Assembly (NCBI GenBank): GCA_039545315.1
Contig: BCIM01000001.1
Location: 606,805-670,804, forward strand
Direction: 5' to 3'
Length of the DNA stretch: 64,000 bases
Source: Kondoa malvinella
Taxonomy: Eukaryota; Basidiomycota; Agaricostilbomycetes; Agaricostilbales; Kondoaceae
Of this stretch, positions 13,379 through 14,204 are shown piece by piece. Position numbers and translations under genes: made by a program. Positions within the stretch are counted from its first letter, which is position 1. Each line of letters starts with the position of its first letter. The notes beneath the pieces are model-generated. The model did no database searches. It was not told the origin of the DNA and saw only the letters and a list, made by a program, of their open reading frames with translations.

Positions 13379-14204
13379 ATGGCTCGTACAAAGGTAGCTT
13401 GAAATCTGTAGAGCGTTTAAAGATGTACTGACGTGTATGACGCGCAGCAAACCTCGCGAAAGAGCAGTAAGTACCAAAAAGCTCTCGCGTCTCCTTTCGC
13501 TTATACACCTTCAACCTAAGCTGGAGGCAAAGCTCCGCGCAAGCCACTGAAAGCTACGAAGGACGAATCTAGCGAAGATGCCGGGAACGAAGCACCATCA
13601 CGTAGAGCACCAAGAAAGCAACTCGCTGCCAAACCAGAGCCCAAAGCAAAGAAAGAAGAGCCTGAGAAATCAGCTGCGAGTTAAGAGCACTTCCCAAGCG
13701 AGGACAATGAGGAGCCAGAGGAAGGCGAGACGAAAGAAAGCGAACCCGAGGCAGAAGTCGTTCAGCAGCCCAAGGCACGCGCGCATGGTAAGGCCTTATT
13801 CTGATAGAACCCTATCGAGGCTAATATAGCGAGTGCAATTTGAGGTAAAGCACCTCGCAAGCAGCTAGCGGCGAAAGCTGTTAGGAAGCCTGCACCTGTA
13901 TATAATCCCGACGAAGATGAAGGCGACGAAGACCCAGAGGAAGAGCAGGCCAAGAAAGAAGAGAGCGAGGAACAGGCAGCGCCTCAATACAAGTCTCGTA
14001 CTAAGACTACTTCGCGCAAAAGCAGTAAGTCTCTGCTCGGCTGACGCTGTGGTCACCTCTGATGCTAGGCGTGCAGCTGGCGGCAAGGCTCCTAGAAAAC
14101 AACTATCTGCAAAGGCCGTGCGAAGACCCGCTCCTGGTACTGCCATACAAGCTGAAGATGACAAGCAGGAAGGATCGTCAAAGAGGCGAAAGTTGGACAA
14201 CTGA
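13379..14204 (+). CDS. tandem histone H3 N-terminal tail mimic without histone fold
   Basis: Exons 13379..13393, 13448..13466, 13521..13787, 13845..14024, 14077..14204 join to 609 bases in one frame, with an in-frame TAA at 13682..13684. The protein opens [19 protein letters not shown], which is the H3 tail with Ala7 changed to Ser. Further copies follow: [10 protein letters not shown] in exon 3; [18 protein letters not shown] in exon 4; and [10 protein letters not shown] joined to [20 protein letters not shown] over exons 4 and 5. Acidic linkers separate them and KRRKLD ends the protein. Lysines matching H3 K4, K9, K14, K18 and K23 are kept in the long copies. No histone fold is present. The TAA would stop translation after 65 residues unless it is spliced out or read through: an 84-base intron 13602..13685 or a 45-base intron 13680..13724 would keep the frame. 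Inference: a decoy, scaffold or competing substrate for enzymes and readers of the H3 tail. Expression is unproven. Confidence 0.75.

What the first reader, a model, noticed from the sequence alone, without database searches (positions are those of the whole stretch)
13379..14204. A protein made of repeated histone H3 tails, without a histone fold
Seen: after Met removal the protein would start [18 protein letters not shown], identical to H3 residues 1-18 except Ala7 to Ser, followed by further tail copies ([38 protein letters not shown] plus [20 protein letters not shown]) set in acidic linkers. There is no histone fold. Known: H3 K4, K9, K14, K18 and K23 are targets of methyl- and acetyltransferases and their readers. 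Inferred: this is a multivalent H3-tail mimic that could titrate, recruit or regulate COMPASS, K9 methyltransferase, HP1 or SAGA-type factors. I do not know of a described protein with this architecture; that should be tested by search.
Basis: partly seen in the sequence, partly recalled or inferred. Interest (0 to 1): 0.95.

Follow-up and report, generated by a model that had tools for sequence, protein, structure and literature searches.

The report
Protein of repeated histone H3 tails
A fungal gene is built from copies of the flexible tail of histone H3 without the rest of the histone; selection kept the copies alike for a long time, but one of its exons carries a stop codon, so it may make a shorter two-tail protein that imitates histone H3, or may have been lost recently.

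Summary
The repeated H3 tails are real: four copies of 10-30 residues, acidic linkers, no histone fold. But exon 3 is 267 nt with matching phases: skipping it, with the intron-2 donor and intron-3 acceptor, gives an open 113-residue protein with two near-complete H3 tails. The intron-3 acceptor is a poor GAG, and no transcript data exist.

This is neither chance nor a fresh duplication. Copies 3 and 4 differ at 19 of 54 bases but 2 of 18 residues; 0 of 20,000 neutral simulations had so few. The tail and the K4|Q5 intron match an H3 gene of this genome. K14/K18/K23 are mostly kept; the A-R-K-S contexts of K9 and K27 are changed wherever covered. This suits a mimic for acetylation or import factors better than an HP1 bait.

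Two searches found no relative, but the species seems absent from that protein set. In passing: H3 tails also head relatives of a 2OG dioxygenase in fungi, an oomycete and a hydrozoan. Present function is undecided.

The parts
13379..13393 (+). Exon 1, ATG then A-R-T-K (H3 residues 1-4)
   Evidence: same exon end as the H3 gene on C12
13394..13447 (+). Intron 1 (GTAGCT...CGCAG), branch-point match CTGAC 16 nt before its end; same site (K4|Q5) as in H3 gene C12
13448..13466 (+). Exon 2, Q-T-S-R-K-S plus the first base of codon 11
13467..13520 (+). Intron 2 (GTAAGT...CTAAG), AAG acceptor, CTTAT 17 nt before its end; inside codon 11, as in copy 4
13521..13787 (+). Exon 3 (267 nt, phase 1 at both ends, so it can be skipped in frame): back half of tail copy 1 (to K18 at 13543), acidic linker, tail copy 2, TAA, acidic linker
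   Evidence: codon-usage scores positive on both sides of the TAA
13604..13633 (+). Tail copy 2, [10 protein letters not shown] (H3 14-23, K14 to R)
13682..13684 (+). In-frame TAA stop inside exon 3
13788..13844 (+). Intron 3 (GTAAGG...TTTGAG), GAG acceptor (an in-frame AAG end at 13850 is the alternative); CTAAT 20 nt before its end
13845..13897 (+). Tail copy 3 (first base of its first codon is 13787): [18 protein letters not shown] (H3 13-30, A25V, S28P)
13994..14135 (+). Tail copy 4, split by intron 4: [30 protein letters not shown] (H3 1-30)
14025..14076 (+). Intron 4 (GTAAGT...GTGCAG), inside codon 11 of copy 4, CTGAT 14 nt before its end
14136..14204 (+). C-terminal end with basic SSKRRKLDN, then TGA

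Best explanation
The gene arose from the 5' end of an intron-bearing H3 gene (shown: same tail, same K4|Q5 intron). It gained an intron in codon 11 and was duplicated internally with it (the shared intron site and shared S7, V25 and P28 are shown; the order of events is inferred). Selection kept the tail residues while silent sites diverged (shown for copies 1, 3 and 4). The product is or was a disordered nuclear protein of basic H3 tails and acidic linkers (composition shown; disorder and location inferred). It imitates above all the K14-K18-K23 part of H3 for the proteins that act there: Gcn5/SAGA-type acetyltransferases and bromodomain readers, or the H3 import receptor; tandem tails would make it a competitor or a docking scaffold (inferred). 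Exon 3 with its stop may be an optional or poison exon: joining exon 2 to exon 4 rebuilds an H3 tail ([28 protein letters not shown]) and leaves a two-tail protein of 113 residues (the open frame is shown; that this splicing happens is inferred).
For: Tail copies and intron sites. Copies 3-4: 16 silent and 3 replacement differences in 18 codons; copies 1-4: 9.5 and 4.5. 19 base but 2 residue differences, and 14 but 2; 0 of 20,000 neutral runs had as few in either case. Derived residues shared between copies (S7 in 1 and 4; V25 and P28 in 3 and 4) speak against separate capture from H3. Codon-usage scores favour the reading frame in the exon stretches tested before and after the TAA. Alternating charge, 7% order-promoting residues. 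A branch-point match 14-20 nt before the end of each of the 4 introns. Skipping exon 3 gives an open frame with the GTAAGT donor of intron 2 and an acceptor with a branch-point match at 20 nt.
Against: In-frame TAA; two weak acceptors, one of them (GAG) needed for the exon-skipped form too; exon 2 runs smoothly into exon 3 as H3 (T-G-G-K-A-P-R-K), so exon 3 looks like a normal exon; no transcript data; no relative held. Past selection does not show present function. Copy 2 is short and shares 18 bases in a row with the C4 H3 gene, so it says little. Copy 1 lacks K23, copy 2 K14. Partner proteins are inferred from H3 biology.
Confidence: 0.45

Rival explanations
1. A once-functional poly-H3-tail gene that was recently inactivated: exon 3 is a normal exon, its TAA is a real nonsense mutation, and the locus is now a young pseudogene or gives only a 65-residue stub with copies 1 and 2.
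For: TAA inside an exon that reads on as H3 from exon 2 and scores as coding on both sides; AAG and GAG acceptors against 16 of 16 YAG in H3 genes.
Against: No other stop or frameshift in about 200 codons of the spliced model; exons after the TAA keep coding statistics; exon 3 can be skipped in frame.
Confidence: 0.28
2. The tails act mainly as nuclear import signals: they bind a Kap123-type importin and either import this protein or compete with H3 for import.
For: Kap123 binds H3 1-28 through K14 and K23 (PMC5677370, passages read); copies 3 and 4 keep both with the H3 spacing; A7, A25 and S28 are not named as contacts in the passages I saw.
Against: K4, K9, S10 and T11 in copies 1 and 4 would not need to be kept for import (inference); copy 1 lost K23 and copy 2 K14; the basic SKRRK near the end could serve import more simply.
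Confidence: 0.15
3. The stop codon is an assembly or sequencing error and the four-copy protein is intact.
For: A second gene of this assembly (C10 dioxygenase) shows a one-base frame break in conserved sequence, which may be an assembly error.
Against: That break is an indel, this is a stop without an indel; the C10 gene may itself be decayed (no ATG directly before its tail). I had no reads to check.
Confidence: 0.15
4. A piece of a transposon that captured H3, as hAT elements did in Dothideomycetes.
For: Captures of H3 by hAT elements are known in fungi (PMC6710886, passages read).
Against: Single locus in this genome, introns kept, a GEN1-like gene upstream, tails only; in that paper most captured copies in P. 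fijiensis match the third H3 exon and the copies lack introns.
Confidence: 0.03

Closest known systems
PAF15/PCLAF, H3-tail mimic bound by the UHRF1 PHD finger
   Same: Non-histone protein whose N-terminus is H3-like and is bound as H3 is (PMC7060239, passages read)
   Different: PAF15 has one H3-like N-terminus and acts with PCNA; here several copies reaching H3 residue 30, acidic linkers, no PIP-box match, no Pfam match
H3-tailed relatives of a PF13640 2OG-Fe(II) dioxygenase (seen in this work)
   Same: H3 tail on a non-histone protein, one of them in this genome (C10:450336)
   Different: One tail; R2-Q5 and A7-S10 kept and similarity fading after about residue 18 in the six relatives aligned; here several tails, A7 changed, K14-K23 kept, no enzyme domain
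Histone H3 and tandem-H3 predictions
   Same: Tail sequence and the K4|Q5 intron
   Different: No histone fold
hAT-captured H3 copies of Dothideomycetes
   Same: H3 sequence moved to a new place in a fungus
   Different: Dispersed repeats, in P. fijiensis mostly the third exon and without introns; inactivated by RIP in six genomes, 23 of 26 copies apparently functional in Pyrenophora (PMC6710886, passages)

Membership tests
Histone H3 | Histone fold after the tail | tested here: not met
   0 Pfam families at E<=0.1; PDB matches shown (60 of 127) align the tail
Histone H3 | H3 N-terminal tail | tested here: met
PAF15/PCLAF (PF15715) | Match to the PAF15 family model | tested here: not met
   no family at E<=0.1 (that PF15715 is PAF15 is recalled)
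PAF15/PCLAF (PF15715) | PCNA-binding PIP box | tested here: not met
   no match to Q..[ILM]..[FYW][FYW] (the motif is recalled)
H3-tail mimic (functional class) | Binding by an H3 writer, reader or import receptor | not testable with these tools
   needs binding assays
H3-tail mimic (functional class) | Tail residues held by selection outside a histone | tested here: met
   for the past; present status open because of the TAA
hAT-captured H3 | Transposase and terminal repeats around the copy, many copies | tested here: inconclusive
   single locus; terminal repeats and transposase not searched

The most novel reading that the evidence does not exclude
A natural, selected, multivalent H3-tail protein without a histone fold: a soluble array of H3 K14/K18/K23 (and K4/K9) sites with the A-R-K-S contexts altered, which buffers or docks the acetylation or import machinery of H3, and whose dose or valency is set by an exon that carries both extra tail copies and a stop codon. 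With the H3-tailed dioxygenase relatives it would show that eukaryotes reuse the H3 tail as a portable module on non-histone proteins.
Probability: 0.33. Interest if true: 0.88.

Novelty: new variant of a known kind. Interest (0 to 1): 0.6.

Why it matters
The H3-tail mimic that I could document (PAF15) carries one short copy. A protein of several long copies, kept by selection while its silent sites turned over, would be a natural tool to ask which H3 lysines matter apart from the nucleosome. The contrast between this protein (K14-K23 kept, A7/A25/S28 changed) and the H3-tailed dioxygenase relatives (R2-Q5 and A7-S10 kept) suggests that each addresses different machinery, which peptides can test.

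Tried and rejected
Chance similarity: rejected. An intron over the TAA: of 225 donor-acceptor pairs scanned (donors 13467-13683, acceptors 13686-13989), 59 leave the frame open to the last stop and 9 of these have a CTNAY branch-point match 7-45 nt before the end; these 9 use the acceptors 13844, 13850 or 13868 with donors 13467, 13602 or 13680. I find the skip of exon 3 (13467 to 13844 or 13850) most plausible. The short 39-nt intron 13680-13718 and the 252-nt intron 13467-13718 have no branch-point match. Independent capture of each copy from H3: unlikely, shared derived residues. C10:277132 KAPRKQL match: chance, in a frame with stops in another gene. UHRF1-like and HP1-like partners: SRA and chromo-shadow searches found nothing, but their controls rang nowhere, so both are inconclusive; Pre-SET (K9-methyltransferase type) is present at 2 places. 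Relatives: one search lists 120 of 858 hits at E<=0.01 (7960 candidates scored, flooded by H3); by simple fold-motif regexes 119 of the 120 carry histone-fold motifs and one does not (P0008, Cooperia oncophora, three tails, 3.2-kb contig, possibly an annotation artefact). Only proteins of about 112-355 residues could be found, so a 65-residue prediction would be missed. with H3-common words masked gave 72 candidates, none at E<=10. Papers: nine answered searches showed no natural multi-copy H3-tail protein in the titles and abstract starts listed; two lists came back empty, and of the 49 papers only 6 were listed.

Full report
What is there. The window lies in contig C1 of a 19.1-Mb, 20-contig genome, by its introns and protein relatives a fungus, probably a basidiomycete (inference; the top protein relatives of the C10 gene are Agaricomycetes, none of the listed dioxygenase hits above 39% identity). 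At 13379-14204 the + strand encodes, by splicing, MARTK|[196 protein letters not shown].

Can splicing avoid the TAA? Exon 3 (13521-13787) is 267 nt long and begins and ends in phase 1. Joining exon 2 to 13845 (or 13851) gives an open frame of 113 (or 111) residues that begins [28 protein letters not shown], an H3 tail 1-30 lacking two residues, and ends with copy 4. Both tails of this form carry S7, V25 and P28, so a two-tail gene with exon 3 added later is a simple history (inference). Of 225 donor-acceptor pairs scanned, 59 leave the frame open and 9 have a branch-point match; the skip of exon 3 is among them. A 39-nt and a 252-nt intron ending at 13718 keep the frame but lack a branch-point match. 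Against: exon 2 also runs smoothly into exon 3 as H3; the acceptor at 13844 is GAG (13850: AAG), while the 16 introns I delimited in five H3 genes end in YAG; intron 2 ends in AAG. All four introns have a CTNAY match 14-20 nt before their end, as do 15 of the 16 H3 introns within 7-45 nt.

Coding statistics. With codon usage from seven long ORFs of the window, the frame scores 20.2 bits in 52 codons before the TAA, then 3.3 in 11, 8.7 in 23, 23.5 in 59 and 14.0 in 41 codons after it; the best frame of the four introns ranges from -8.3 to +2.0 bits in 17-19 codons, so the 11-codon score alone is weak.

Origin. The H3 gene on C12 has an intron at the same place after K4, and the C14 H3 gene resumes at the same base. 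The intron inside codon 11 occurs in copies 1 and 4 and in none of the five H3 genes. So an H3 5' end was copied as DNA, gained that intron, and was duplicated inside the gene (inference from positions).

Selection. Between copies 3 and 4, 16 silent and 3 replacement differences fall on 15.3 silent and 38.8 replacement sites; between copies 1 and 4, 9.5 and 4.5 on 14.5 and 39.5. Neutral change to the same base distance gives 10.8 residue differences on average (8.6 for copies 1-4); 0 of 20,000 runs had as few as the observed 2, in both cases. The stretches were picked because they look alike, but that cannot produce turned-over silent sites beside unchanged residues. Copy 2 (10 codons) is no evidence: it shares 18 bases in a row with the C4 H3 gene. 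The result concerns the past since duplication; it does not show that the gene works now.

Which part of H3 is kept. K14: copies 1, 3, 4 (copy 2 has R). K18: all four. K23: copies 2, 3, 4. K4 and K9: copies 1 and 4, both that cover them. K27: copy 3 (copy 4 has R). The A-R-K-S context is changed at K9 (A7S, 2 of 2) and K27 (A25V and S28P, 2 of 2). From recalled knowledge, HP1- and Polycomb-type readers use that context, whereas Gcn5-type acetylation acts on K9/K14/K18/K23. From PMC5677370 (passages read), Kap123 grips K14 and K23. So the array looks aimed at the K14-K23 machinery rather than at HP1. Only the N-terminal copy offers a free A-R-T-K end.

Relatives. The read-through protein gave 858 hits at E<=0.01; of the 120 listed, 119 carry histone-fold motifs by simple regexes and one (P0008) does not. 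A masked query found 72 candidates, none at E<=10. The species itself seems absent from that set, and no relative genome is held, so absence is weak evidence. Within the genome no second locus of this kind was found.

A second H3 tail. At C10:450336 the same genome encodes [30 protein letters not shown] joined to a PF13640 2OG-Fe(II) oxygenase, with 23 silent and 3 replacement differences on 24.8 silent and 65.2 replacement sites against the C4 H3 gene. It has no ATG directly before the tail and a one-base frame break further on. Of 67 relatives looked at (of 120 listed), 11 have an H3-like tail near the N-terminus, among them proteins of Dichomitus, Tetrapyrgos, Phytophthora and Clytia; 5 of the 11 bear the PF13640 label; the count is biased because the query held the tail. 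In an alignment of H3, C10 and six of the 11, R2-Q5, A7-S10 and P16 are invariant and similarity fades after about residue 18 in most, nearly the opposite emphasis to the window protein. Paper searches listed nothing on this by title or abstract start.

Verdict. The four-copy protein as a present product is unproven because of the TAA; a two-tail product by skipping exon 3 is open in frame but unproven too. Best reading: a selected H3-tail mimic aimed at the K14-K23 machinery, either still made in the short form, or recently lost.

Noticed in passing
L037 2837-4300 (G000:C10:450336 on): H3 tail (29 of 30 residues as H3) on a PF13640 2OG-Fe(II) dioxygenase; no ATG directly before it and a one-base frame break downstream. 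Relatives with H3-like N-termini occur in fungi, an oomycete, a hydrozoan and environmental sets (11 of 67 looked at).
   Followed up: partly
L031 around 850-1250 (G000:C14): H3 gene whose exon 1 reads M-A-R-T and whose exon 2 starts Q-T-A-R-K, so the predicted H3 lacks K4; the intron between is 315 nt, much longer than the others. A missed micro-exon is possible.
   Followed up: partly
window 12038-13147 (+): ORF with a GEN1 C-terminal domain (Holliday junction resolvase) ends 231 bases upstream of the H3-tail gene on the same strand.
   Followed up: no
P0008 (Cooperia oncophora): Predicted 185-residue protein with three H3 tails and no histone-fold motif on a 3.2-kb contig; could be an artefact of a histone array.
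   Followed up: no
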